Source of the DNA: a virus
Direction: 5' to 3' (one strand)
IMG/VR virus record: IMGVR_UViG_3300008450_000388
Span: 1 to 26,226 of that record
DNA length: 26,226 bases
Shown here: positions 647-26,226 of the stretch, one piece after another
How positions within the stretch are numbered: the stretch's first letter is position 1
Layout of the letters: each line of letters opens with the position of its first letter
The notes under the pieces: model-generated
The model's database searches: none
What the model saw: the letters and a program-made list of their open reading frames with translations, nothing else
Told to the model about the DNA's origin: nothing
Made by a program: the position numbers and the translations under genes

Positions 647-725
647 TGGAGCTTCACAGTAATGTATATACTATTAGCATCACTATTTTTTTTGCAGGTG
701 CCACCCATCTATTTCACTATTTTTA

Positions 726-754
726 TTGACTTCTCATAAATATTATTGTATAGT
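726..754 (+). promoter_or_regulatory. Sigma70-type promoter for the polymerase-like gene
   Basis: TTGACT (726-731), a 17-base spacer and TATAGT (749-754) make a near-consensus host-type promoter. The predicted start is about 761, leaving an 18-base leader before the ATG at 779. This excludes the TTG at 746 as the start codon, because it would lie upstream of the RNA. It suggests that host RNA polymerase transcribes this gene early, independently of the late operon. Confidence 0.75.
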
Positions 755-778: not shown

Positions 779-2329
779 ATGGCAACTTATTATTCAACTA
801 AGCAGATTGCTGACTTAGCACAGCAGGAACTCTGCATCAAAAGCAATAAAACCTTATCCAAAGCACAGCAATATCATGACGTAGTTTACCGTGAAATAAT
901 TTACGGTTATCATGTATTGGCCACGGCTGCACAGATCAAAAGCAATCAGATTCCATTTAGCCTACAAAGAGTGCGAGCACAACTTGGACGTTATGGTGTT
1001 CCACAACAATATTGGTGGGATTGGTTGCACAAGAATTTTCCATTAATAAAAATTACTAAAATGGGAAATTCAATTAAAGGAGAACTTTCAATGGCTGAGC
1101 CACAAATACCCATAGACATTGTTCTTGCCAGTGGTAATGGTAAAGATCTAGTAAGTGCAATTTACAGTCAATTTGATCCAAACAGCGATCTGCATTTTGC
1201 ACCCATTAATGTTTACAGTTTAGAAAACTATTGCAGAGCCACAAGAATGGAAGGCAATAAGAACGAAACGATACAAAGAAACCTACGTGCGGCAGAAATT
1301 ATATTGGCCATTGCACGTGAATGCGCGGGACGTTTACCACAGGTAGTAAACTTTTCTAGTTTTGGACGCACTTACTACAAAGGCATTAATTTACAAAGTG
1401 TGCATAAGACTGTGCGTCATGCGGCCCTGGGTGCCTGTTACGCAGTAGACATTGATACCAGTGTGTTCAATTGGAAATATGCTATGGCACCATTTCAAGA
1501 AGAATTAACCTACACACGTGAGCTCATACAGGATAAAGATCGCGTTCGTAGAAGTTTGGCACTATTAGTATTTGGCAATAACAGTGATTATTCTATCAAA
1601 ACCGTCAAGCAGGTGCTTACAGCAATTTCCTTTGGTGCAAAGAGTGAAACACGCTGTTGGTTCAAACGTGATGGCGTATGGACACAGGGTAGTGTGTCAG
1701 AAATTATCCGCAGTAAGCAGTTGCGTGAACAGTTGTTTGCAGATCCTTGGATGCAGAATTTTATGCGTGAACAGGATCGCATCAACAAACACATTGGAGA
1801 CAGTCTTGCACAAGCCGCAGGTAATGGTGATATACCAGAAACATATCTAAAAGATCTACGCAGTGAACGTGGACGCATCAGCAAGGGAAAATTAATTGCT
1901 TGGGCTTATCAACAGAATGAACAGCAGGTAATGCGCAAAATTATTGAAGCCGCAAGGGCAGAAGTATTGTTGCAGGTGCATGATGGTGTGTATTTTAAAA
2001 CCAAACCAGACATGCCCAGTATGCAGACTGTGCTACGTGCAGAATGGCCCATTGCTAGATTAAGCATTGAAGAAATTGACAACTATCATTATCGCAACAG
2101 AGAATTGGATCAAGAACATCTTGACTTCATAAGAGAAGAAGAACGCAAGGCTAATCTAGGACTAGATCCCTTAGTGAATGGCATTCACACAGAAACCCTG
2201 TCACAAAAGCATTTTGATCCGCACAGTGAACCTGATTGGGAAATGATGATGCAGGTGCAATACAATGAGTTATTTCCACAACCAGACAGTCGCATGCCTG
2301 AATTTGCGCGAAAACGTCTTGGCGTCTAA
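779..2329 (+). CDS. Compact, divergent single-subunit polymerase-like protein (PolA / T7 RNAP fold)
   Basis: A 516-residue protein read from the ATG at 779. Motifs appear in the order of family A polymerases and single-subunit RNA polymerases. G196-R197 followed by N204-L205-Q206 recalls the PolA GR-x-SS...PNLQN segment and the RNAP D-x-RGR-x-Y motif. D224 in VDIDTSVFNW fits motif A. K277-x7-F285-G-A-K288 fits the O-helix motif B (T7 RNAP K631...Y639-G-S-K). LLQVH401-D402-G fits motif C. It is far shorter than T7 RNAP (883) or PolA (about 600-930), and no 3'-5' exonuclease motifs are seen; the first 190 residues are unrecognised. D402 and D224 would be the metal-binding aspartates. It is the only convincing plus-strand gene in the window and has a private promoter. 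Template and product (RNA or DNA) cannot be decided from sequence; a reverse transcriptase-like or priming role is an alternative. The gene is certain, the polymerase assignment probable. Confidence 0.72.
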   Translation: MATYYSTKQIADLAQQELCIKSNKTLSKAQQYHDVVYREIIYGYHVLATAAQIKSNQIPFSLQRVRAQLGRYGVPQQYWWDWLHKNFPLIKITKMGNSIKGELSMAEPQIPIDIVLASGNGKDLVSAIYSQFDPNSDLHFAPINVYSLENYCRATRMEGNKNETIQRNLRAAEIILAIARECAGRLPQVVNFSSFGRTYYKGINLQSVHKTVRHAALGACYAVDIDTSVFNWKYAMAPFQEELTYTRELIQDKDRVRRSLALLVFGNNSDYSIKTVKQVLTAISFGAKSETRCWFKRDGVWTQGSVSEIIRSKQLREQLFADPWMQNFMREQDRINKHIGDSLAQAAGNGDIPETYLKDLRSERGRISKGKLIAWAYQQNEQQVMRKIIEAARAEVLLQVHDGVYFKTKPDMPSMQTVLRAEWPIARLSIEEIDNYHYRNRELDQEHLDFIREEERKANLGLDPLVNGIHTETLSQKHFDPHSEPDWEMMMQVQYNELFPQPDSRMPEFARKRLGV

Positions 2330-2460
2330 TTATTGCTACGGTTCTAGTTCAGGGCTAGGATACACTACGCGATGACACATAAAGAACAGATTTTTCAGCA
2401 ACCGCCACTGTAGGGGTATTGCGCCGCGTTAATTTCGCTAGATTTGCAGGGTCCAAATAA

Positions 2461-2480
2461 TAAGGCAAAAAAAATGCCTA
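2461..2480. repeat. Short hairpin with poly-A loop
   Basis: GGCA and TGCC pair across a run of A, flanked by a weaker TA/TA pair. The surrounding TGCAG and CTGCA arms (near 2445 and 2484) can extend it into a longer imperfect stem. Confidence 0.35.
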
Positions 2481-2531
2481 CCTCTGCAGTTTAACCTTAG
2501 CATTGCGCCTCAGTCTGCTAGGATAGGCAAT

Positions 2532-2549
2532 AAAAACCCTAGGGTTTTT
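2532..2549. terminator. Bidirectional terminator-like palindrome
   Basis: AAAAACCCT-AGGGTTTTT is a perfect 18-base palindrome between the convergent polymerase gene and late operon. On either strand the stem is followed by a T-run, as expected for a shared intrinsic terminator. The GC core is only three pairs, so it would be weak. Confidence 0.45.
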
Positions 2550-2550
2550 T

Positions 2551-2598
2551 GTTCCGTTGGGCTAACAAAACCAATTCTATAGGAAGATAGAAAGGAAC
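2551..2598 (+). ncRNA. Predicted three-way junction
   Basis: GTTCC (2551-2555) pairs with GGAAC (2594-2598) and encloses two hairpins: TTGG/CCAA (2557-2560 with 2571-2574) and TTCTAT/ATAGAA (2575-2580 with 2587-2592, loop AGGAAG). The unpaired joints are one base or none. I checked for a hammerhead core (CTGANGA plus GAAA) and did not find one. The strand is uncertain because the pairing is symmetric. Confidence 0.4.
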
Positions 2599-2609
2599 CC
2601 ACGTGAACG

Positions 2610-2702
2610 GTGTAGCGGAGACGATAAACGGAGATATTCAGAATGGCAGTACTGAGATATGATGGTGAAGTGACAGCCTCACCTGTTACATCTCCGCTAC
2701 AC
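2610..2702 (+). ncRNA. Predicted multibranch structure closed by a perfect 12-bp stem
   Basis: GTGTAGCGGAGA (2610-2621) is the exact reverse complement of 2691-2702. Inside, 2634-2641 pairs with 2652-2660 (8 bp, one bulged G, 10-base loop), and GGTGA (2664-2668) pairs with TCACC (2679-2683) with another 10-base loop. The outline resembles RNAs with long terminal stems, such as retron-type ncRNAs, but no family is assigned. It ends three bases before the stop codon of the convergent gene, so it could also be the 3' end structure of the late mRNA. Confidence 0.45.
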
Positions 2703-2729
2703 ATTTATTTATTACGACGTAAAACGTAG
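2643..2729 (+). CDS. Possible 28-residue small ORF (weak)
   Basis: ATG at 2643 is preceded by AAACGGAG at nine bases spacing, and the codons after ATG begin GCA. This resembles the leader of the polymerase gene (AAACGGAG...ATGGCA). The frame encodes 28 residues (MAVLRYDGEV...) and ends at 2729, overlapping the 3' end of the convergent zinc-ribbon gene. It lies inside the 12-bp stem structure, so the start context may be coincidental or a duplicated leader fragment. No function is suggested. Confidence 0.2.
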   Translation: MAVLRYDGEVTASPVTSPLHIYLLRRKT

Positions 2730-4519: not shown

Positions 4520-7500
4520 TTATATCACCGCTGGTTCGCCCGCAGGCACAGTTGCTAATGCAGTCACAGTAGTTGTGCCATATCTCAATATACTTAAATT
4601 TGTAATGCTGGCAATTGATTGATTTAGATTTCTTAGATGCACTACAGGATATTGATTGTAAGCACTTTCTGTTATGTTTGCAGGGTTACCATATTGGAAG
4701 CCATCAATCTTATTAGTTAGACTGATGTATGGTATGTGTGGCAGTAACTGATAGAAATTACCTGTAGATGTTACTGTTAGCACTAGATATTCATAGTTTG
4801 CTGCCAATGCAGCCGCAAGTGGTTTGTTGGTTGAATATAGACTGTTTATTACAATAGTAGTATTAGTCTGTGTAGCACCAGAAGGAGCATTGTAGTAGAA
4901 ATTAAATTCATTGTGACCTAGAGGTGCTCTTAGGTTAACAGTGGTAACATCATTGACTGTGGTGCTGTTGCTGCCACTTATAACTAATTTTTCCCAACGT
5001 CCTACACCCCAATAGTTGCTGTAAAGATCTGTGGCTTGTAGATTGCGTTCTCTGCGATAGATTTCAACTCTGGTAAATCCAGAGATGTTGGCCGCATTGT
5101 ATTTGAGTTGGAAATAGAGTTGGCTTGGGCCGCTTGTGCCATAACCATCCTTTTGTATTCTGCTCCACTCTAATATCTGCACCTGTGTTTTTGCAGGACT
5201 TGGTGAAGGTGTTTGCAATTTTGCAGCCACGTCTGTGAGTGCAAAGTTTAACTGCTGCCAATAGTTAGGGAATGTAGTGCCTGCAACAAAGTTTATGCTG
5301 CCTTTGCCATACCAACCTTTGAAGGCGTTTGTTTTTGAGCCATTATAAAACACCAATGGAACTAATAGGTATTCATACTGAGCGTTATATTGTATAATGG
5401 TTGAAATAAAGTAAAATCCGCCTGAAAGTGTCATTGGGCTTACAGTTACAGAATTCCATGTTGATGCTGTTGTTGGTTTAAAATAAAGTTTAGCACCTGC
5501 CCATACGTTGTCTGGATCTACAACTGGATTAATGTGGAAGCCAATAGCATTGCCACCTCTAGCAAGGTTGAACGTTTGATTAACACTAAATTGAAACTCT
5601 CTTGGATCTACAACACCGCCGCCTGGAGGTGCTTCATCAGTTGTAAGCAAGTTGTAGGCTGTGACGTCTTCTTGACCCTGTGCAATGGCCTGTGTTGATG
5701 TAAAGATATTAAAGTTTCTACCGCCAAACACATCAGTTTCAATTCTAGTGTTCATTACTCTATACTGCTTGGTGCTCTGTTTTCCATCAGTGTATCTAAA
5801 TCTAAACACCCAATCATAAAGTTGGGCGCTGCCTGCGGCACCCAGTGTTGTTGGGAATTCAAATGTGTATGGCTGTCCTTCAGAGTAGGCCACAAAGTCA
5901 ATGGGCTGTTTAGTCCAATAGGTATTTGCACTAGGTTTGTAGTAAATGTCTACGCCTGCTATTCTATTAGTAATAGGATAGTTATTGATGTCTTGTGTAA
6001 CTGTAACGTTGATGCGTCTTGGGTTAGACACAATAGGACGTCCATCCAATGACTTGAATACATTGTTGTAGGTCAATGGAGGAGGTTCAGTGTTCAGCAA
6101 CCAACCTGTGGTTACTGTTTCTTGATAATCAACAGGATTACCTGAACCACCTGCTACAACAGGAATGTTTACTGTGCCTGCAAACTTGCTGTAATCACCT
6201 GTGGTATATTTTACTCTGCTCTTGATGATGTAGGTATAACCACCTGCAAGAGGACCAATGGTTGCTGTGATGTAATTGCCAGCACCAGGTTTGGTTAATT
6301 CAATCTTAGTCTGCCACTGTGTTTCTGATGCAATACTGCGCTTGTAATAGAAATCAACACCCTCATAGAGTGCATTCTGTGGCTGTTTGAAATCCAAATA
6401 CACATAGAAACCTGTGGTTGCATTTCCAACAACTCTATATAGATCAACCTGTATATAATCAGTTAATTCCTGCACAGGAGTTGGTGGAGGAGGTGGATTG
6501 TTTACTGGCTCTTCATTTACAGGACCATCTGGTGCACCTACGCCGCCGCCGTCAGTTGGGTCTGTGCCATCTGTTGGAGGTGGATTTGATATTGGATCAG
6601 TAATCACAGGCTCACCTGTGGTGTTGTCAAATGGGAAGTCTGCTGAAGTAGGCGGAACAAGTCCAACAGGAGGTGTTCGCTTGTTGCCTGGATAGTAGAT
6701 CTCTGCACCCTTGGGAATAAATGGTGGCAGCACTACGTCAATTTCACCCACACGCACATGTGGATACAAGAAATCAGGGTTGCGAACTGCACCAATATCA
6801 AAGGTGTAATCGTTGTTTAACTTTATACTTACAATGCGCCATGGAATTGCATTGTTTAATGGATTTGTGCCAAACTTTAGTATATTGGCATCAATGTAGA
6901 CGTTGTCACCTGGCTCTAGTTCAAAACATGAACTGTCGCCTTTGAATGAAATTGAATCTTGATAGCGTGACTTTTCAAGTATTAGACGTGCCATGTCTTT
7001 GGCAATGGCGTAGTTGGTCAAACCAGGGAATGTGATCTCTGCTTTGTTTTCTCTACCACCATCATCACTTTGTAGTAGCAGTCTAACTGATTCTTGTTCT
7101 GGATACACAACTTCCTGCACTGACCACTTTTGATCTGGGTCTACATAGCGCACCACAACTTGGTTGTATTTGCTGCCACGCTCAATACCTGTGTAGGTAA
7201 TGGCGCCTGTGATGTTGTCTTTGTTGAAAGTTTTTACAATAGTTGCAGAACCTGACAGGATGTCATCTTCATTGCCTGCATCTTCAATCTTAAGTTTGTA
7301 TTTGCCTTGAACATAGGGCAAATAGCCTCTAAAGTTGCTTAAAAGAACCTTAACGTTGTTAAAAATAGTTGACCCTGTGTCTAACACAATGTTAGTGGTC
7401 ATAATAGGACCCTGTATGCCATCAATGTAGGTCACTGTTTGATTACATTTTAGAGCAGCCTTGCGAAAACTGGTCCAATCAATTTCTGCATTGGTTAGTC

Positions 7501-8305
7501 CTTTACCATAGCGTGGATTGCGTAGGTAGTCAAGTAATATTTCAGCAGAGTTTGTAGAATAGCGTTCTGTGTAGCCCACACCACCATAGGTATAGTTTTG
7601 AGTGTCTGTGTTGATAAGACTAGCAACTTTCTTACCCAACAAACTGATCTGAACCTGTGGTATGTTACCTGAGAATGGATTGTTGTCAGCATCCTCTTGT
7701 GTTTTAATTTCTTTCCACTCATAACGTGCAAACAGCGTTACAAGTCCATTATGCACCATCTGTGGTTTCCAACTTGGAGCACTTGCTGTAATGGCTCTAG
7801 TGCCAATTGGTGAATTAGAAGGCGTATTGTAGTAAGTTCCTTGGAAGAACTGTAACTGCACTCTGTTGGCATATTTGCCTGTGGTAATCTCAATGGCCTG
7901 TCCTGCGTTTAAAGGTGCAATTACACTGGATTCTAATTGTGTATCATCAATGAATACTTCACGCAGGCCTTCTACTGGACCTTCTGCAAATGTGTAAACT
8001 ACCCAAAGATATTTGTTGTTGTCTGAACCTGTTTCAGCAAATGTAACAGCACCAGCAATTTTGCGATAGCCATACACCACAGGCACACTTACGTTTGAAC
8101 CCGTAGTTTGGACAAGGACACCTTCCTGCCTCTGCGCCTCTGCGGCGTCATTGGGCATGCTAGGAGTGCCAAAAATGCCCATAAAAGGGCTAGCCACAAA
8201 GTTAACAACAGCACTTATAACCTTACCAACGGCCTTAACAACACCTGTGATTACATTACCAATGGCCTTGGCAACGCTTTTGACTGCTTTAACTACGAAG
8301 CTCAT
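4520..8305 (-). CDS. Tail tip / central fibre protein (lambda J-like host specificity protein)
   Basis: A 1261-residue protein. Residues 1-45 are an amphipathic Val/Ala/Lys segment (VVKAVGKVISAVVNFVASPF) of the kind found at the start of many tail-tip proteins. Residues about 60-230 carry the hub-type sequence NVSVPVVYGYRKIAGAV...YTFAEGPVEGLREVFIDD, and about 250-345 carry LLDYLRNPRYGKGL...FRKAALKCNQTV, both typical of J/Phage-tail_3 family proteins. A Pro/Gly/Asp linker at about 545-612 separates this core from a string of beta (FN3-like) domains that should reach the host surface. AAGGAG precedes the ATG. The gene overlaps the end of the GNAT gene by 17 bases. It closes the distal end of the tail and is the likely main specificity determinant. 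The assignment is firm for the N-terminal half; C-terminal domains are inferred from composition. Confidence 0.85.
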   Translation of the reverse strand: MSFVVKAVKSVAKAIGNVITGVVKAVGKVISAVVNFVASPFMGIFGTPSMPNDAAEAQRQEGVLVQTTGSNVSVPVVYGYRKIAGAVTFAETGSDNNKYLWVVYTFAEGPVEGLREVFIDDTQLESSVIAPLNAGQAIEITTGKYANRVQLQFFQGTYYNTPSNSPIGTRAITASAPSWKPQMVHNGLVTLFARYEWKEIKTQEDADNNPFSGNIPQVQISLLGKKVASLINTDTQNYTYGGVGYTERYSTNSAEILLDYLRNPRYGKGLTNAEIDWTSFRKAALKCNQTVTYIDGIQGPIMTTNIVLDTGSTIFNNVKVLLSNFRGYLPYVQGKYKLKIEDAGNEDDILSGSATIVKTFNKDNITGAITYTGIERGSKYNQVVVRYVDPDQKWSVQEVVYPEQESVRLLLQSDDGGRENKAEITFPGLTNYAIAKDMARLILEKSRYQDSISFKGDSSCFELEPGDNVYIDANILKFGTNPLNNAIPWRIVSIKLNNDYTFDIGAVRNPDFLYPHVRVGEIDVVLPPFIPKGAEIYYPGNKRTPPVGLVPPTSADFPFDNTTGEPVITDPISNPPPTDGTDPTDGGGVGAPDGPVNEEPVNNPPPPPTPVQELTDYIQVDLYRVVGNATTGFYVYLDFKQPQNALYEGVDFYYKRSIASETQWQTKIELTKPGAGNYITATIGPLAGGYTYIIKSRVKYTTGDYSKFAGTVNIPVVAGGSGNPVDYQETVTTGWLLNTEPPPLTYNNVFKSLDGRPIVSNPRRINVTVTQDINNYPITNRIAGVDIYYKPSANTYWTKQPIDFVAYSEGQPYTFEFPTTLGAAGSAQLYDWVFRFRYTDGKQSTKQYRVMNTRIETDVFGGRNFNIFTSTQAIAQGQEDVTAYNLLTTDEAPPGGGVVDPREFQFSVNQTFNLARGGNAIGFHINPVVDPDNVWAGAKLYFKPTTASTWNSVTVSPMTLSGGFYFISTIIQYNAQYEYLLVPLVFYNGSKTNAFKGWYGKGSINFVAGTTFPNYWQQLNFALTDVAAKLQTPSPSPAKTQVQILEWSRIQKDGYGTSGPSQLYFQLKYNAANISGFTRVEIYRRERNLQATDLYSNYWGVGRWEKLVISGSNSTTVNDVTTVNLRAPLGHNEFNFYYNAPSGATQTNTTIVINSLYSTNKPLAAALAANYEYLVLTVTSTGNFYQLLPHIPYISLTNKIDGFQYGNPANITESAYNQYPVVHLRNLNQSIASITNLSILRYGTTTVTALATVPAGEPAVI

Positions 8306-20447: not shown

Positions 20448-20782
20448 TAGAGATACCTGTCCTCTACTTTGATTCTAAAGCGGCGTGCATCTACGTCTGC
20501 GCCTGAAGTGGTCACTGTGCAGGTTACTGTGTATATTTCACCTTCTTTACCACCACTGAGTTCAACGTAGGTTATGCCACCCGCTTGTATTCCTGAGCTT
20601 TCTATGGTCAATGGTGTTGTGTCACCTGTAATGGTGCTCACTGTGTAGGTTACTGCACTGATTGAATTACCCTGTGCTAACCACTCAGTGCCCCAGTCCA
20701 TTGCGTAAACCAACTGTGCGTCAGGATCTTTGGGTATCCAACTGCCCTTTACATCTTGTTTGTATCCAGTTTTGATTGTCAT
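20447..20782 (-). CDS. Fibre-tail adaptor-like small Ig-fold protein
   Basis: A 111-residue protein lying between the large fibre gene and TerL, overlapping both by 4 and 1 bases. It contains LVYAMDWGTEWLAQGNSISAVTYTVS and ends with EGEIYTVTCTVTTSGADVDARRFRIKVEDRYL, an immunoglobulin-like beta sandwich pattern. Proteins with this D-W-x-x-WL...I-x-x-x-x-Y-T signature in marine and alphaproteobacterial phages are annotated as phage fibre-tail adaptors (Gp77-like). The coupled upstream fibre with its repeated C-terminal peptide may be the partner. The domain call is by memory of the pattern. Confidence 0.65.
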   Translation of the reverse strand: MTIKTGYKQDVKGSWIPKDPDAQLVYAMDWGTEWLAQGNSISAVTYTVSTITGDTTPLTIESSGIQAGGITYVELSGGKEGEIYTVTCTVTTSGADVDARRFRIKVEDRYL

Positions 20783-23700
20783 ACCGTTAATATCCTTGTT
20801 TCTTGTTTTACTAATAGACCCCTATCTTCACTCTGCACCTTGATCTGTCTAGTTTCCTGTGGCACAATCAGTGTATAGTAGTCATCTATGTTAATTACTC
20901 TACCAGCAGTTAGTTGGAATCCGCTTACTTGTAGGTCTGCACGAGCGCTGACCAAGTAAGTGATTACAAACAAACCACTGGCCTGTGCAGTCATTGAGGC
21001 TTCAAAGAAGATTAAGATCTCTGAAACTGGCACACTAAGACTGGTAGTAGTATTTAAGCCAACCGCGTTATCGCGTATGCGATTTGGGGTGAAAACAGTC
21101 TCTGCTGAAGTATTGAATGAACCTGTGATGTCAGTGATCTTCTGACCTGGTATTGCAACTGCAAAATTGCTCTCTAAGGCAGCTTCAACACGCTTGATCT
21201 TGTCTGCGGCAATCGCACTGGTAAATTCAGCACCAAGTCCTGCAGCACCAAATACAGTCTTGATTGGATCTGCACTGAACTGTGCTTCAACAACTTGATT
21301 GCTGACCACATCAGTCTGTTTGAATGCATCTGCTGTGAGTGCAGCCACAGCGTCTATGGTTACAAGACCTTGTCCAGTTTTAACAACAACAGAAAGTTGT
21401 GTTGCAATTGAGTCAGTTTGAACAGCATTGTCTCTGAATCTATCATTTAGAGTAGATTGAGCAAATTCACTGTTTAAGAACGCACTTGGTGTTTTGAGTA
21501 TTTCACCAAATGGTAAGTTAAAATTGGCTGATGCTGAAAGAGCACTATCTGCGTAACGAACTCTACGTCCACTTGCTGATTGGGTTGCAGTTACAGTTTG
21601 ATTAGAAATACCTCTTGCTGTCTTACGTGCAATACTATTTTGAACAAAGATTGAGCTGAGTGTTCTTGCACCAGGACTGCGTATTCTATTATAAGTTATA
21701 TCCAGCGCAAATTCAGAACTTAGTGCAACACCAGGATCTCTAAGGCGTCTTGCACTTGTAGATTGTGTAGCTGTAGCTGTAATATTTGCATCAGCATTTA
21801 CAATAACATCAATATCGCAGGATACAGTGGATGTTGCGGCTGCTGACGCACTGAAGTCAAATGTATAACCTGTTAGAACTGTGCCTACTTTGGTATAGTT
21901 CCAAGCAGGTGCTACGTTGTTGCCTGTTTCATAGATACCCTGTTCCCAGTTATGATAGACTTCTGGAGTTATAGTATCATTGACATTGTCAAAACCAGGT
22001 TCATTAGGCAATACTTGTGTAGAAGTTACAACACCATTAGTGCCATAGGCAATTTCCCAACCTGTTGCATCATTGTAGAAATCAGTATTTCTGATTACAT
22101 TTGGGAATTGTGTTTGTTTAATCCACAGTTTGTTGATGTAGATGCTGAGATCAGTTTTGCTACTGTCTCCCCATATACCTGGATTTAAACTGTTTTCAAC
22201 ATAACCATTCAATACATTGCTGGTTGAGGTAGTTAAATTAAATGCAGAATTATTTCCATCAAATGATCCAACAGCACCAGCACTATCAGTAATTAATGGT
22301 AGTGTAACATTATGCCATTGAGTAAAGTCAATATTAGTTGCTGTGGTTGTTAAATCTGTAACAGATAAAATATATGTGCCTTCACTCTGCACAGTATAAC
22401 GTCTACTAGTGAATCTATAAGCACCTGAAGGTAATTTAGTTACTACTAAGCGGCTAGTATAAGTTGGATCAGATACAAAACCTCTAGCCTTAGATTGCCA
22501 TATTGTAATAGTTTCATTGGTGTTAAGATTTCTACTTAATCTCAACCACATATTGGCCATGCTCTTAGAACTTAACCAAGTTAATGTATTATCTAAATCA
22601 GCCGCAGTGATTGTAGCGCCGTTAATTAACTGTAGATGTTTGAAGTTTGCTGTTGCACTTAGAGATGCTGTGCTCTGTAGATTAGCAAATGTGCCCTTGT
22701 TCTTAATCGCATCAGCAGTTAGTGTAGCTGAAACAGGAAGATTTAATATAATGCCCTGCAAGCGTTCTGCGTCTGTGACCTGTGTAGTAACGGTTTGGAG
22801 TTCACTGACACCAAATCTAGTTCTATCACCAATGGCCACAACAGTTGCGATTGCTGTGGCTTCCATCTCACCAGGATTTAGTGCGCCAGCATTGATTACA
22901 AATGTGAGTGCGCTGTCAATTGAGGCACTAACTTCTATGGTAAATCCACCTGCGGCATTTACAGCAAACTCAGAAGCTAATGCGCTTGCGGCATCATTTA
23001 CCACAGTGGCACTAGCAGTTAATGACGCCTGTGCTGTAATAGAGGCAGCAAGTCCTGTTATAGTGTCAGCGTCTGCACTTAATCTTGTTTCTGTGCTAAA
23101 ATTAGCAACAACAGGAACTAGGATTGACGTGTCATCGTTAGCATTAGCATCAAAGTGAACTAATAGACTGGTTCTATCATCATTGTAGAATCTGTCTGTG
23201 GGAACTGTGACAGTGGTATTGGCAGTAGACCAACCATATGGAAAACTGGTCTTGCCTCTTACAATCCTAAATTCATCTACATAGGCGCTGCCTGCATAAC
23301 CTGTTTGGCCAATTCTAATTGAACCATTGGCCAATGAATAGCCTGTGTTTATTGTGGCTCTGGTTCCTCTGGTGCCATTGGTATAAACAGCAACGTTGTT
23401 AGTGCCTGTGTGCGATAGAATTAATATGTGATTCCAAGCATTTGCAGTAAGTGTGCCACCAAATGCTGTGGTAGATCCTACTTGGAATGTGATGTTAGAT
23501 GGTGATGCGGCGCTGGTAATTGCTGTGTAGCGCACAGTTCCACCTGAATCTTTAACTTCAAACAAAGGCACGTTGCTCACACTACCATAGATCCAGAATT
23601 CTATGGCAAGATATTCATTGTTGAATGACGTATTGTTTGGTATGCCGTAAGTTACTGAATTGTTGGTGTTGATCAGCGCAGAATGTGTGCCAAACTTCTT

Positions 23701-24450
23701 GATATTTGTAAAATAATCACCTGCACCCAGAGTATTTGCAGTCTGTGTGAGTGGACGACCTGGATTGAACGGTGTTACCAGTGCGCCTAGACTAAACGCA
23801 TTTTCAAATCTTGTGTAAGGTAATTTTACAGCGTAAGTGGTCTGTGCTGAAACTGTAGCTGTAGCAGAGAGACTTGCACTGGCTTCTTTGGTATTAGCAT
23901 TTGCAGAGACTTCAAGAGTAACCGCGGCTTCAATCTGTGAATCAAAGTCGCGGCTACGAGCACCCTCTGCTGAAGATACAAACATGTTGCTGGCTGTGGC
24001 ATCACTGCTTCTAACTCTAACATAGTCAGTGGCAATGTCAAATATGTCTGAAAGTGCAGCCTCATAGTCTCTGCTGGCAGAAATGGCTGCTGCCAATGCT
24101 GCCTCAGCAAAGGCAAACAGGTCAGCGCCTTCAATGTGACTGATTGTGCCTGAGCATGCGAACTCTGCATTTAGAGCGGCAGCGTATTCTTTGATTACAC
24201 CTACGACGGCATCAACGGTTGCACTAGAACTTAAGGCTGCTTCTGCTTCTTGTAGTGCGCCTTCAACTTCTGTAAGTTCACAGCTTAACTGCGCAAAGCC
24301 ACCAAAGTCTTCGTAATAATTGTATTCAATCCAGTCTGGATCAATGTAGAAGCCTGCGTCAAGACGTGCCTCAGCACTATAGACATAGTATTCTTCTGGT
24401 GTAAAATACCCTAGTTCTATGTATAAATTGTCAGTGGCTTGTCTTGACAT
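20779..24450 (-). CDS. Large repetitive fibre with a LamG/concanavalin A-like domain
   Basis: A 1223-residue virion adhesin. Residues 1-205 are Ala/Ser/Glu-rich and helical. About 210-440 is a LamG-like jellyroll (FGTHSALINTNNSVTYGI, LAIEFWIYGS, NAWNHILILSHTGTNNVAVYTNG, AYVDEFRIVRG). About 600-790 looks like a second lectin-type beta domain. About 880-1180 is a shaft of loose repeats (pattern R-x-R...L-x-S-x-F). The last 27 residues are three 9-residue repeats. It probably binds surface glycans of the host. It is co-translated with the adaptor gene (4-base overlap). Its position upstream of TerL, away from the tail genes, suggests an exchangeable host-range module. Domain limits are approximate. 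Confidence 0.82.
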   Translation of the reverse strand: MSRQATDNLYIELGYFTPEEYYVYSAEARLDAGFYIDPDWIEYNYYEDFGGFAQLSCELTEVEGALQEAEAALSSSATVDAVVGVIKEYAAALNAEFACSGTISHIEGADLFAFAEAALAAAISASRDYEAALSDIFDIATDYVRVRSSDATASNMFVSSAEGARSRDFDSQIEAAVTLEVSANANTKEASASLSATATVSAQTTYAVKLPYTRFENAFSLGALVTPFNPGRPLTQTANTLGAGDYFTNIKKFGTHSALINTNNSVTYGIPNNTSFNNEYLAIEFWIYGSVSNVPLFEVKDSGGTVRYTAITSAASPSNITFQVGSTTAFGGTLTANAWNHILILSHTGTNNVAVYTNGTRGTRATINTGYSLANGSIRIGQTGYAGSAYVDEFRIVRGKTSFPYGWSTANTTVTVPTDRFYNDDRTSLLVHFDANANDDTSILVPVVANFSTETRLSADADTITGLAASITAQASLTASATVVNDAASALASEFAVNAAGGFTIEVSASIDSALTFVINAGALNPGEMEATAIATVVAIGDRTRFGVSELQTVTTQVTDAERLQGIILNLPVSATLTADAIKNKGTFANLQSTASLSATANFKHLQLINGATITAADLDNTLTWLSSKSMANMWLRLSRNLNTNETITIWQSKARGFVSDPTYTSRLVVTKLPSGAYRFTSRRYTVQSEGTYILSVTDLTTTATNIDFTQWHNVTLPLITDSAGAVGSFDGNNSAFNLTTSTSNVLNGYVENSLNPGIWGDSSKTDLSIYINKLWIKQTQFPNVIRNTDFYNDATGWEIAYGTNGVVTSTQVLPNEPGFDNVNDTITPEVYHNWEQGIYETGNNVAPAWNYTKVGTVLTGYTFDFSASAAATSTVSCDIDVIVNADANITATATQSTSARRLRDPGVALSSEFALDITYNRIRSPGARTLSSIFVQNSIARKTARGISNQTVTATQSASGRRVRYADSALSASANFNLPFGEILKTPSAFLNSEFAQSTLNDRFRDNAVQTDSIATQLSVVVKTGQGLVTIDAVAALTADAFKQTDVVSNQVVEAQFSADPIKTVFGAAGLGAEFTSAIAADKIKRVEAALESNFAVAIPGQKITDITGSFNTSAETVFTPNRIRDNAVGLNTTTSLSVPVSEILIFFEASMTAQASGLFVITYLVSARADLQVSGFQLTAGRVINIDDYYTLIVPQETRQIKVQSEDRGLLVKQETRILTV

Positions 24451-24459
24451 TCTATTTCC

Positions 24460-26226
24460 TTAGTTGTAGTGTGTTGTAGACACACCGTTGTCGTCTATAA
24501 AGGTTGTTATGGCATCAGTGCCATCCATGTGCAATAACAGTAATGTGTTAGCATCATTCTGGAATGGTGCTGAGGGTGCTGTGAAACCAGCAGTATATCT
24601 GGCTGTATTACTGTAACGCACTTCGTCAATGTGACCATTGAAACTTTCAATGCCGCCACCTGTGCTTACAAACGCACCAATGTCAATGTCTCCATTAACA
24701 TCTAGACTTGCTGAACTTGTGCCAATGGTTGTGGCTGCACCGTTGAGGAATCCATACCAAGTAGAACCTGAACGCACTACGGCTACGTGATACCAGGTGT
24801 TGGCAGCAACTGTGCCTATGCTTATGCCGTTGAATATGTTCCATGTGCTGGATCCGCTTGAAGCGTAGACTCTGAGTGTAGTGCCGTTTTGATATACAGT
24901 TAGACCCCATCTACCACTTACACCTGTAAGGCTCATTACGTGATAATTTGTGCCTGTGTTGGCAGGACGTATCTGAGCTTCAAATGTAAAGTCTGCTGAA
25001 GGTGAAACACCCACAGAGTAAGCTCTCACATGATCACCTGTGCCATCAAACAGAGCACTTGCACCACCAAATTTACTCTGTGCGGTATCAATCTGTGCAT
25101 TACCAACAGCAACTACCCCTCTAGCACTTCTGCCTGTGCCATTGTCGTCAACAAACACAGTTGTAGCATCTGTGCCATCCATGTGTAACAATAGTAATGT
25201 GTTAGCATCATTAGTGAACTGTGCTGATGGTGCTGTGAAATTACTGGTGTATCGTGCTGTGTTTGAAACGCGGAACTCATCCATCCAACCATTGATTGCC
25301 GCAGTTCCATCAAAACTTGCGCCTATGTATAATGGTGCAGGGCTGATATAGTTAGTATTGTCAGTCCAGGTTGCTTCAGACGTTCCATTAAAATACAATG
25401 TAGTAGTAGAACCATTTCTAACCAATGCTAGATGATACCAAGTGCCAGTGGTCATTGAATTTGTTCCTGTGGCCACTGTGCTTCCATTGACAAAAAGATA
25501 TTGTCTATTATTGCTGTTAATACCCCAATATATTTGATTCTGTGGAGTCGCAGACAAATGCGTTGCAATGGTTGTAAATGAACCAACAGCGTTAAATCTA
25601 ATCCATGTTTCTAGTGTAAATGCACCTGTGCCATATCCAAATGCAGAATTTGATGCTGAGAATAGATAATCTCCTGTGCCGTCAAGTAATAGACTTGAAC
25701 CGCCAAATTTACTCTGTGCGGTGTCAATCTGTGCATTACCAATTGCGGTCATACCTACTTTGGCTCTCGCGCCATTGTCATCTTCAAAATAAGTTGAAGC
25801 ATCTGTGCCATTCATGTGCAATAACAATACTGTATTCTGGTCATTAACATGTGGTGCTGTTGGTGCTGTAAAGTTAGCAGTATAACGTGCTGTGTTAGAA
25901 ACACGCACTTCATCAACCCAACCATCAATAAAGTTAGTGATACTGTTCTGATCTGCACCAATATAGGTTACAGAAGATGTTATGTAGTTTGTAGAATCAC
26001 TGTAGGTTGATCCAGCTTGAGTGCCATTGATAAACATTTTTGTATCAGTGCCACTGCGACTCACAGCAATGTGATACCAAGTTCCTGTTGACAGCGTAGA
26101 TGACGTGATTCTATCAGCAGTATTAGCATAGTAGACTAGAGTTGACCCTTTAAGTGTTATGGCTGGATATGCTCCATTGCCGCTAGAAGGTCTTTGATCC
26201 CACAGTAATTCATAGTTTCCTGCACT
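24460..26226 (-). CDS. Multi-LamG-repeat adhesin, cut by the right window edge
   Basis: The frame is open from the right edge to a stop at 24460, giving 588 visible residues without a start codon. It consists of tandem LamG jellyroll units of about 210-218 residues. Each has SKFGGSSLLLDGTGDYL-type openings, a WYHIAVSRSG / WYHLALVRNG / WYHVAVVRSG strand, a WMDEFRVSNTARYT element and a LLLLHMDGTDA linker. Two units are complete and one is partial. The last linker is followed only by ITTFIDDNG and a short tail (VSTTHYN), as if a further unit had been removed. LamG domains usually bind carbohydrate, so this is a likely receptor-binding or capsid-decorating fibre. Nine bases separate its stop from the next fibre gene. 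Confidence 0.85.
   Translation of the reverse strand, partial: SAGNYELLWDQRPSSGNGAYPAITLKGSTLVYYANTADRITSSTLSTGTWYHIAVSRSGTDTKMFINGTQAGSTYSDSTNYITSSVTYIGADQNSITNFIDGWVDEVRVSNTARYTANFTAPTAPHVNDQNTVLLLHMNGTDASTYFEDDNGARAKVGMTAIGNAQIDTAQSKFGGSSLLLDGTGDYLFSASNSAFGYGTGAFTLETWIRFNAVGSFTTIATHLSATPQNQIYWGINSNNRQYLFVNGSTVATGTNSMTTGTWYHLALVRNGSTTTLYFNGTSEATWTDNTNYISPAPLYIGASFDGTAAINGWMDEFRVSNTARYTSNFTAPSAQFTNDANTLLLLHMDGTDATTVFVDDNGTGRSARGVVAVGNAQIDTAQSKFGGASALFDGTGDHVRAYSVGVSPSADFTFEAQIRPANTGTNYHVMSLTGVSGRWGLTVYQNGTTLRVYASSGSSTWNIFNGISIGTVAANTWYHVAVVRSGSTWYGFLNGAATTIGTSSASLDVNGDIDIGAFVSTGGGIESFNGHIDEVRYSNTARYTAGFTAPSAPFQNDANTLLLLHMDGTDAITTFIDDNGVSTTHYN
24500..25850 (-). repeat. DNA-level tandem repeats of about 630-655 bp in the adhesin gene
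   Basis: The linker sequence GTGCCATCCATGTG (plus strand) recurs near 24519, 25173 and, with one change, 25806, spacings of about 654 and 633 bases. The segment AAATTTACTCTGTGCGGT recurs near 25070 and 25703. The repeats allow unit gain or loss by recombination and can mislead short-read assembly. Confidence 0.75.

What the first reader, a model, noticed from the sequence alone, without database searches (positions are those of the whole stretch)
779..2329. Very compact, divergent single-subunit polymerase expressed alone from an early-type promoter
Seen: in one 516-residue protein, a GR...NLQ element (196-206), an Asp-containing motif A (D224), K277-x7-FG-x-K (motif B/O-helix) and VHD402 (motif C), in the correct order. 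Known: these motifs define family A DNA polymerases and T7/mitochondrial-type RNA polymerases, which are much larger. Inference: the protein is a minimal member or a new branch, with only about 27 residues between the GR motif and motif A (over 100 in T7 RNAP, closer to PolA spacing) but with RNAP-like residues in A and C. Solitary plus-strand placement with its own host promoter recalls early phage RNA polymerases. It could transcribe the late genes, prime replication or copy the nearby structured RNA.
Basis: partly seen in the sequence, partly recalled or inferred. Interest (0 to 1): 0.88.

Follow-up and report, generated by a model that had tools for sequence, protein, structure and literature searches.

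The report
Compact phage primase-like polymerase (TV-Pol)
A tailed phage carries, alone on one strand, a small unannotated DNA-polymerase-I-like enzyme of the known but barely studied TV-Pol family, whose active site lacks the residue that normally keeps out RNA building blocks, so it probably starts the phage's DNA replication by making primers rather than transcribing its late genes.

Summary
The 516-residue protein (779-2329) carries every stated motif at the stated position. Apart from GR/Y (one exception each) the motif residues are invariant in every relative that covers them (35 aligned). AlphaFold2 (mean pLDDT 82) gives a family A right hand; residues 136-435 match Pol theta (Z about 17) and T7 DNA polymerase (about 15). 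Pfam, PHROGs and NCBIfam have no model for it.

It is not a new branch of T7-type RNA polymerase. A profile of plasmid, chromosomal and Microcystis-phage relatives, built without the phage clade, finds it at E=6e-29. Those relatives fit the TV-Pol family (Iyer et al. 2008), predicted primase-polymerases; the one tested member (CcPol of SCCmec) makes DNA primers.

Newly seen here: a tailed-phage clade (about 18 contigs) with its own active-site signature. The Klenow E710 ribonucleotide gate is Val/Ala, Y766 is Phe and HDE is HD(G/A/S/C). Residues about 56-110 look winged-helix-like (unconfirmed). No other family A polymerase or DnaB was found in 17 contigs. Several relatives have iteron arrays, one with DnaA boxes, just upstream.

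No phage-specific promoter set was found, although the same test recovers T7's. Best reading: an origin-linked primase-polymerase, possibly making RNA or mixed primers.

The parts
779..2329 (+). TV-Pol family primase-polymerase gene, 516 aa
   Evidence: ORF; profile of relatives excluding the phage clade matches at E=6e-29; AF2 model pLDDT 82 with family A polymerase fold
944..1108 (+). N-terminal domain, residues about 56-110, predicted strand-helix-helix-strand-strand arrangement (winged-helix-like); proposed DNA-binding part
   Evidence: Secondary structure of model (E58-60, H62-69, H79-86, E90-94, E104-108), pLDDT 80-90 for most of it; not confirmed by any match (one search found nothing)
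1211..1321 (+). thumb-like helical pair, residues 145-181
   Evidence: H145-158 and H163-181 in model; inside the stretch aligned to family A polymerases
1364..1396 (+). GRxYYxGxNLQ element, residues 196-206 (template-strand beta-hairpin Arg; Klenow R668...Q677 equivalents)
   Evidence: R197 and Q206 invariant in the homologues that cover them
1448..1465 (+). motif A, D224-I-D-T-S-V229; V229 sits where Pol I has E710
   Evidence: D224 invariant; position 229 is V/A in phage clade, H in nearly all others, never E
1607..1642 (+). motif B, K277-x7-F285-G-A-K288
   Evidence: K277, G286, A287 invariant; F285 in 20/20 phage-clade members, Y in 14 of 15 plasmid/chromosomal and other members
1910..1921 (+). 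Q378-x-x-E381 (PolA 'QGT' / T7 RNAP H784 position)
   Evidence: Q378 and E381 invariant in 35 homologues
1976..1987 (+). motif C, V400-H401-D402-G403
   Evidence: H401, D402 invariant; next residue G/A/S/C, never E
726..754 (+). sigma-70-type promoter-like site TTGACT-17-TATAGT
   Evidence: not above chance count; flanking block shared with relative L044
747..763 (.). palindrome TGTATAGTTACTATACA overlapping the -10 element; possible operator
   Evidence: unique in window, 0.07 expected
680..728 (+). two 15-nt direct repeats TCACTATTTTTTTTG / TCACTATTTTTATTG upstream of the gene (weak)
   Evidence: repeat statistic for this window alone is not significant

Best explanation
The gene encodes a TV-Pol: a stripped-down family A polymerase (thumb, palm, fingers, no exonuclease) with an N-terminal domain that looks like a winged helix. 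Shown: membership by sequence profile, the family A fold, the complete two-aspartate active site, and the lack of the Pol I ribonucleotide gate in all members. Inferred: it is made early from its own host-type promoter, binds DNA at or near an origin beside its own gene through its N-terminal domain, starts chains without a primer (RNA, DNA or mixed, because the usual gate against ribose is absent), and hands the primers to the host replisome. In other words it serves a small siphovirus as its initiator-primase.
For: TV-Pol profile link E=6e-29 without the phage clade; leaving Ma-LMM01 out still recovers it at 2.7e-8. Ma-LMM01 and a Thauera sp. are named TV-Pol carriers (PMC2579912). CcPol, a TV-Pol, primes DNA synthesis de novo with its partner MP (PMC7581432). 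Fold: Pol theta Z 17.1, T7 DNA polymerase 15.2, residues 133-435. Active-site table. No DNA_pol_A or DnaB match in 17 related phage contigs, so TV-Pol is the only recognised polymerase there. Related genes lie on plasmids, one of them next to repA. Iteron arrays directly upstream of the gene in L023, L044, L048 and L051, above shuffles and above nearly all other windows of the same contigs; two DnaA-box-like sites upstream in L051.
Against: No helicase or SSB partner gene next to it in the window, and CcPol needs a partner protein to prime. The iteron signal is absent or not significant in the window itself and over all 16 loci combined it is modest. The winged-helix reading of the N-terminus rests on secondary structure alone. 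The window and most related contigs are fragments, so 'only polymerase' may be incomplete. No biochemistry exists for this clade.
Confidence: 0.55

Rival explanations
1. Primer-dependent DNA polymerase (gap filling, repair or replication) with no primase activity.
For: All shown structural neighbours are DNA polymerases; CcPol without its partner MP only extends primers; no MP-like co-directional neighbour in the window.
Against: The E710 equivalent, important for dNTP selection and the ternary complex in Pol I, is missing in every member; family context is plasmid/mobile-element replication initiation.
Confidence: 0.2
2. A single-subunit transcriptase of the phage (early RNA polymerase that transcribes late genes).
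For: V/A/H in place of E710 and HD(G/A/S) instead of HDE resemble T7 RNAP; solitary gene with its own sigma-70-like promoter; convergent to the late operon in the window, G413, G416 and G418.
Against: No repeated promoter-like sequence in the window or in six related contigs beyond shuffles, except a G410 family that looks like ribosome-binding sites, while T7's promoters are found by the same test; T7 RNAP's Y639/H784 are F/Q; plasmid relatives have no late genes to transcribe; no T7 RNAP profile match.
Confidence: 0.15
3. It works on RNA or on transcripts (reverse-transcriptase-like use of the structured 2330-2704 region).
For: The convergent gap folds better than shuffles.
Against: Fold and motifs are family A, not RT; the folded gap is an ordinary place for terminators between convergent genes.
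Confidence: 0.03

Closest known systems
TV-Pol family (Iyer, Abhiman and Aravind 2008, PMC2579912), including Microcystis phage Ma-LMM01 and Thauera sp. members
   Same: Minimal thumb-hairpin-palm-fingers unit, 400-600 aa, no nuclease domains, mobile elements and phages; profile match
   Different: Tailed-phage clade with its own signature (V/A229, T281, F285, HDG/A/S/C), extra N-terminal part, no linked D5 helicase or resolvase in the window
CcPol-MP primase of SCCmec (PMC7581432, PMC10061031)
   Same: Described as TV-Pol, family A palm, replication module of a mobile element
   Different: CcPol keeps E710 and F762 equivalents (E174, F225) and uses dNTPs; here these are V229 and T281, and no MP-like partner gene is seen
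divPolA2 of barbaviruses and vibriophages (PMC11348598, AUR84708)
   Same: Divergent phage PolA lacking exonuclease; GGRMY...NLP and YD motifs visible in its sequence (printed)
   Different: Keeps Glu at D+5 (YDFKAFE) and has FDE for motif C; no significant sequence link (hhalign probability 3-9%)
T7-type single-subunit RNA polymerases
   Same: DxxGR-like hairpin, K-x7-(Y/F)-G motif B, non-Glu residues at D+5 and after HD
   Different: The window protein is about 370 residues shorter, with no detectable profile link, no promoter family, and F/Q instead of Y639/H784

Membership tests
TV-Pol | Sequence-profile relation to named TV-Pols | tested here: met
   E=6e-29 with a profile lacking the phage clade; Ma-LMM01 recovered at 2.7e-8 when left out. 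That my Ma-LMM01 gene MAP_030 and Thauera gene are the very ones in the 2008 alignment is inferred from organism and context.
TV-Pol | Beta-hairpin with absolutely conserved Arg | tested here: met
   R197 invariant in 33 of 33 sequences covering it; strands 185-192 and 198-201
TV-Pol | RRM-type palm with two conserved Asp | tested here: met
   D224 at end of strand 220-225, D402 in the 396-400/403-406 hairpin; palm aligned to Pol theta and T7 DNA polymerase
TV-Pol | Thumb of two antiparallel helices | tested here: met
   H145-158, H163-181 in model, inside the aligned range
TV-Pol | Fingers with conserved Asp and RxxxK | tested here: inconclusive
   K277 invariant, but position -4 is not Arg in any of 35 members, including the Ma-LMM01 and Thauera proteins, so the published motif may refer to another pair; R257 is conserved
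TV-Pol | No nuclease domain | tested here: met
   516 aa, no Pfam/NCBIfam/PHROG domain
TV-Pol | Neighbouring D5 helicase, resolvase or integrase | tested here: inconclusive
   None in this 26-kb fragment; recombinases on the plasmids of relatives, integrases near L035 and in G410
T7-type RNA polymerase | Set of phage-specific promoters | tested here: not met
   None in window and six contigs; T7 control gives 8 copies at 6 sites
T7-type RNA polymerase | Tyr639/His784 ribose-selection pair | tested here: not met
   F285 and Q378 by motif alignment
T7-type RNA polymerase | Fold match to RNA polymerases | tested here: inconclusive
   None in the 50 rows shown, which is no exclusion
T7-type RNA polymerase | Promoter-dependent RNA synthesis | not testable with these tools
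   needs biochemistry
CcPol-MP type PolA-SSB primase | E710/F762 equivalents kept, dNTP-specific | tested here: not met
   V229 and T281
CcPol-MP type PolA-SSB primase | Adjacent OB-fold partner gene | tested here: inconclusive
   No co-directional gene follows in the window; a 64-aa gene follows in L023 and a 95-aa gene in L061/L062, folds not tested

The most novel reading that the evidence does not exclude
These tailed phages use a one-polypeptide origin-binding RNA (or mixed RNA/DNA) primase built on a family A polymerase core with a winged-helix domain: neither a DnaG, nor an AEP, nor a T7-type polymerase, and unlike CcPol free of the ribonucleotide gate. It would be a living intermediate between DNA Pol I and T7-type RNA polymerases.
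Probability: 0.3. Interest if true: 0.78.

Novelty: new variant of a known kind. Interest (0 to 1): 0.5.

Why it matters
TV-Pols were proposed in 2008 as the minimal ancestor-like form of both DNA Pol I and T7-type RNA polymerases, with combined priming and polymerising activity; as of 2020 the paper describing CcPol knew of no other member tested, and CcPol turned out to be a DNA-only primase that needs a partner. The phage clade described here lacks the ribonucleotide gate in every member and seems to be the only polymerase in many small phages, so it offers a direct test of the 'ancestral RNA/DNA primase' idea, a possible further solution to phage replication initiation, and a profile with which many unannotated phage genes can be named.

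Tried and rejected
Pfam, PHROGs, NCBIfam and PDB sequence searches with the single protein gave nothing usable, nor did a 16-member profile against PDB sequences. Profile comparison with single T7 RNAP, T7 DNAP and divPolA2 sequences was too weak to place it. Looking for phage-type promoters: none beyond shuffles, apart from a G410 family that proved to be ribosome-binding-site-like sequence. No T7 or N4 RNA polymerase was among the 50 structural rows shown, which does not exclude similarity. An iteron claim for the window itself was dropped: the repeats are not significant there; the 6-mer enrichment across upstream regions was only marginal. The PF00940 search in the phage contigs was uninformative because the control rang nowhere. 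Tree: the window groups firmly with L044 (100/98), but the deep split of phage clade from plasmid clade is poorly supported. The plasmid annotation 'Clp protease N-terminal domain' for a relative comes from a sub-threshold Pfam match inside the polymerase domain and was set aside.

Full report
Observation. A sigma-70-type site lies at 726-754. Such sites are no commoner in this stretch than in shuffles, but the block TTTTTATTGACTT...TAAATA is kept in the nearest relative L044, whose protein is only 40% identical. A 17-bp palindrome overlaps the -10 element.

What the virus is. The window is a fragment of a siphovirus: terminase, portal, major head protein, tape measure and tail fibre J all lie on the minus strand. 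The gene is the only sizeable plus-strand gene and runs head-on into the 3' end of that late operon.

Finding relatives. Single-sequence searches failed in Pfam, PHROGs, NCBIfam and PDB. Tblastn linked the protein to a 767-aa protein of Desulfovibrio phage 7757 (E=3e-9) and weakly to a Polaromonas plasmid protein. The latter led to a second plasmid, where the gene sits about 10 bp before repA, and to Microcystis phages including Ma-LMM01. Alignment-based scans added betaproteobacterial contigs and viral contigs. A final scan with four phage-type members gave 21 viral loci, about 18 of them distinct besides the window's own virus.

Fold. With 14 sequences AlphaFold2 gave a confident core. With 25 sequences the mean pLDDT rose to 82.4 and pTM to 0.71. 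Foldseek's shown hits in PDB are all family A DNA polymerases (best E 2.5e-7). VIA-align gives Z 17.1 for Pol theta (271 residues, 3.8 A) and 15.2 for T7 DNA polymerase (264 residues, 4.1 A) over residues 133-435. In the viral library the best hits are two uncharacterised proteins of uncultured tailed phages; the Zamilon virophage 'DNA replication protein' follows further down at E=3.7e-6. D224 ends a palm strand and D402 sits in the motif C hairpin. Their distance in the model could not be measured, since the tool releases no coordinates.

Family. Iyer, Abhiman and Aravind (PMC2579912) defined TV-Pol as the minimal unit of family A polymerases and T7-type RNA polymerases, found in mobile elements and small viruses, with Ma-LMM01 and a Thauera sp. 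among the members, and predicted joint primase and polymerase activity. A profile built from my plasmid, chromosomal, Desulfovibrio-phage and Ma-LMM01 relatives, without the four phage-type members then in hand, finds the window protein at E=6e-29. A profile without Ma-LMM01 still finds Ma-LMM01 at 2.7e-8. T7 RNAP is not found, and T7 DNAP only at E=0.15. The phage-type members group together, with the window next to L044 (100/98), but the deep split is weakly supported.

Active site. Over 35 members (positions counted only where a sequence covers them) R197, Q206, D224, K277, G286, A287, Q378, E381, H401 and D402 do not vary, and G196 and Y199 each have one exception. Position D+5, which is E710 in Klenow and excludes ribonucleotides (PMC9324360), is V or A in the phage clade and H in nearly all others, never E. 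K+4 (F762 in Klenow) is T in 19 of 20 phage members. K+8 (Y766, or Y639 of T7 RNAP) is F in 20 of 20 phage members and Y in 14 of 15 others. After HD comes G, A, S or C. The Klenow and T7 RNAP equivalences rest on motif spacing and general knowledge, not on a residue-level superposition. CcPol, the biochemically tested TV-Pol, keeps E710 and F762 and uses dNTPs (PMC7581432), so this clade is a different variant. A caution: Tt72 DNA polymerase also has Ser after the motif C Asp, so the motif C change by itself does not mean RNA synthesis. The published RxxxK finger motif is not seen at the expected place in any member, including the Ma-LMM01 and Thauera proteins.

N-terminal part. Residues about 56-110 are predicted as strand-helix-helix-strand-strand, the order of a winged helix, with some conserved positions in the clade. 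No structural or sequence match confirms this; it is a proposal.

Context. None of 17 related viral contigs has a DNA_pol_A or DnaB match (the controls rang). Gene lists for four contigs of 36-42 kb show TV-Pol as the only recognised polymerase and, in G413, G416 and G418, the same convergent placement as in the window. Other relatives have the gene in line with their neighbours. Iteron-like arrays stand directly upstream in L023 (5 exact TAGTGTAACTAAAA), L044, L048 and L051, above shuffles and above nearly all other windows of the same contigs; combined over all 16 loci the signal is modest (Fisher p 0.019 against shuffles, 0.14 against other windows). L051 also has two DnaA-box-like sites. 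For the window the repeat statistic is not significant.

Transcriptase test. In T7 DNA the same script finds the promoter (8 copies at 6 separated sites). In the window and the related contigs nothing exceeds shuffles, except a G410 family that is a ribosome-binding-site context.

Judgement. The polymerase and its TV-Pol membership are well supported (about 0.95, my estimate). The most likely job is starting replication as a primase-polymerase at or near an origin beside its own gene (0.55). A primer-dependent DNA polymerase (0.2) and a transcriptase (0.15) remain possible. The finding is a new variant of a known kind.

Noticed in passing
L023:7371-7595 (IMGVR_UViG_3300028400_000030): Five exact copies of TAGTGTAACTAAAA plus a 25-nt inverted repeat just upstream of the polymerase gene; none elsewhere in the locus (0.43 expected).
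   Followed up: partly
L069 about 7050-7545 (contig G410, same as L051): A long direct repeat upstream of the polymerase gene with two DnaA-box-like TGTGGATAA sites and an inverted repeat; looks like a replication origin.
   Followed up: partly
L071:935-1861 (contig G416): A 308-aa reverse transcriptase (RVT_1, E=2e-19) at the edge of a TV-Pol phage contig, preceded by an unidentified 313-aa protein; retron-like.
   Followed up: partly
window 2330-2704: Gap between convergent genes with a 12-bp perfect inverted repeat (2610-2621/2691-2702) that folds better than shuffles on both strands (z about -3); no Rfam match.
   Followed up: partly
L004:6095-7600 (Polaromonas plasmid pH8NP1): A TV-Pol relative is annotated 'Clp protease N-terminal domain-containing protein', from a sub-threshold Pfam match inside its polymerase domain.
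   Followed up: yes
L035/L038 and L018 (same Comamonadaceae genome, G004): One bacterial genome carries two different TV-Pols: a phage-type one not far from integrase genes and a plasmid-type one.
   Followed up: partly
window 20779-26064: Two very long minus-strand proteins with repeated LamG-like or alanine-rich stretches upstream of the terminase, in an unusual place for tail fibres.
   Followed up: no
L065:16618-17274 (contig G418 36615-37274): A 219-aa protein with CPMC...CLQC zinc-ribbon-like spacing in a TV-Pol phage that has no recognised helicase or primase.
   Followed up: partly
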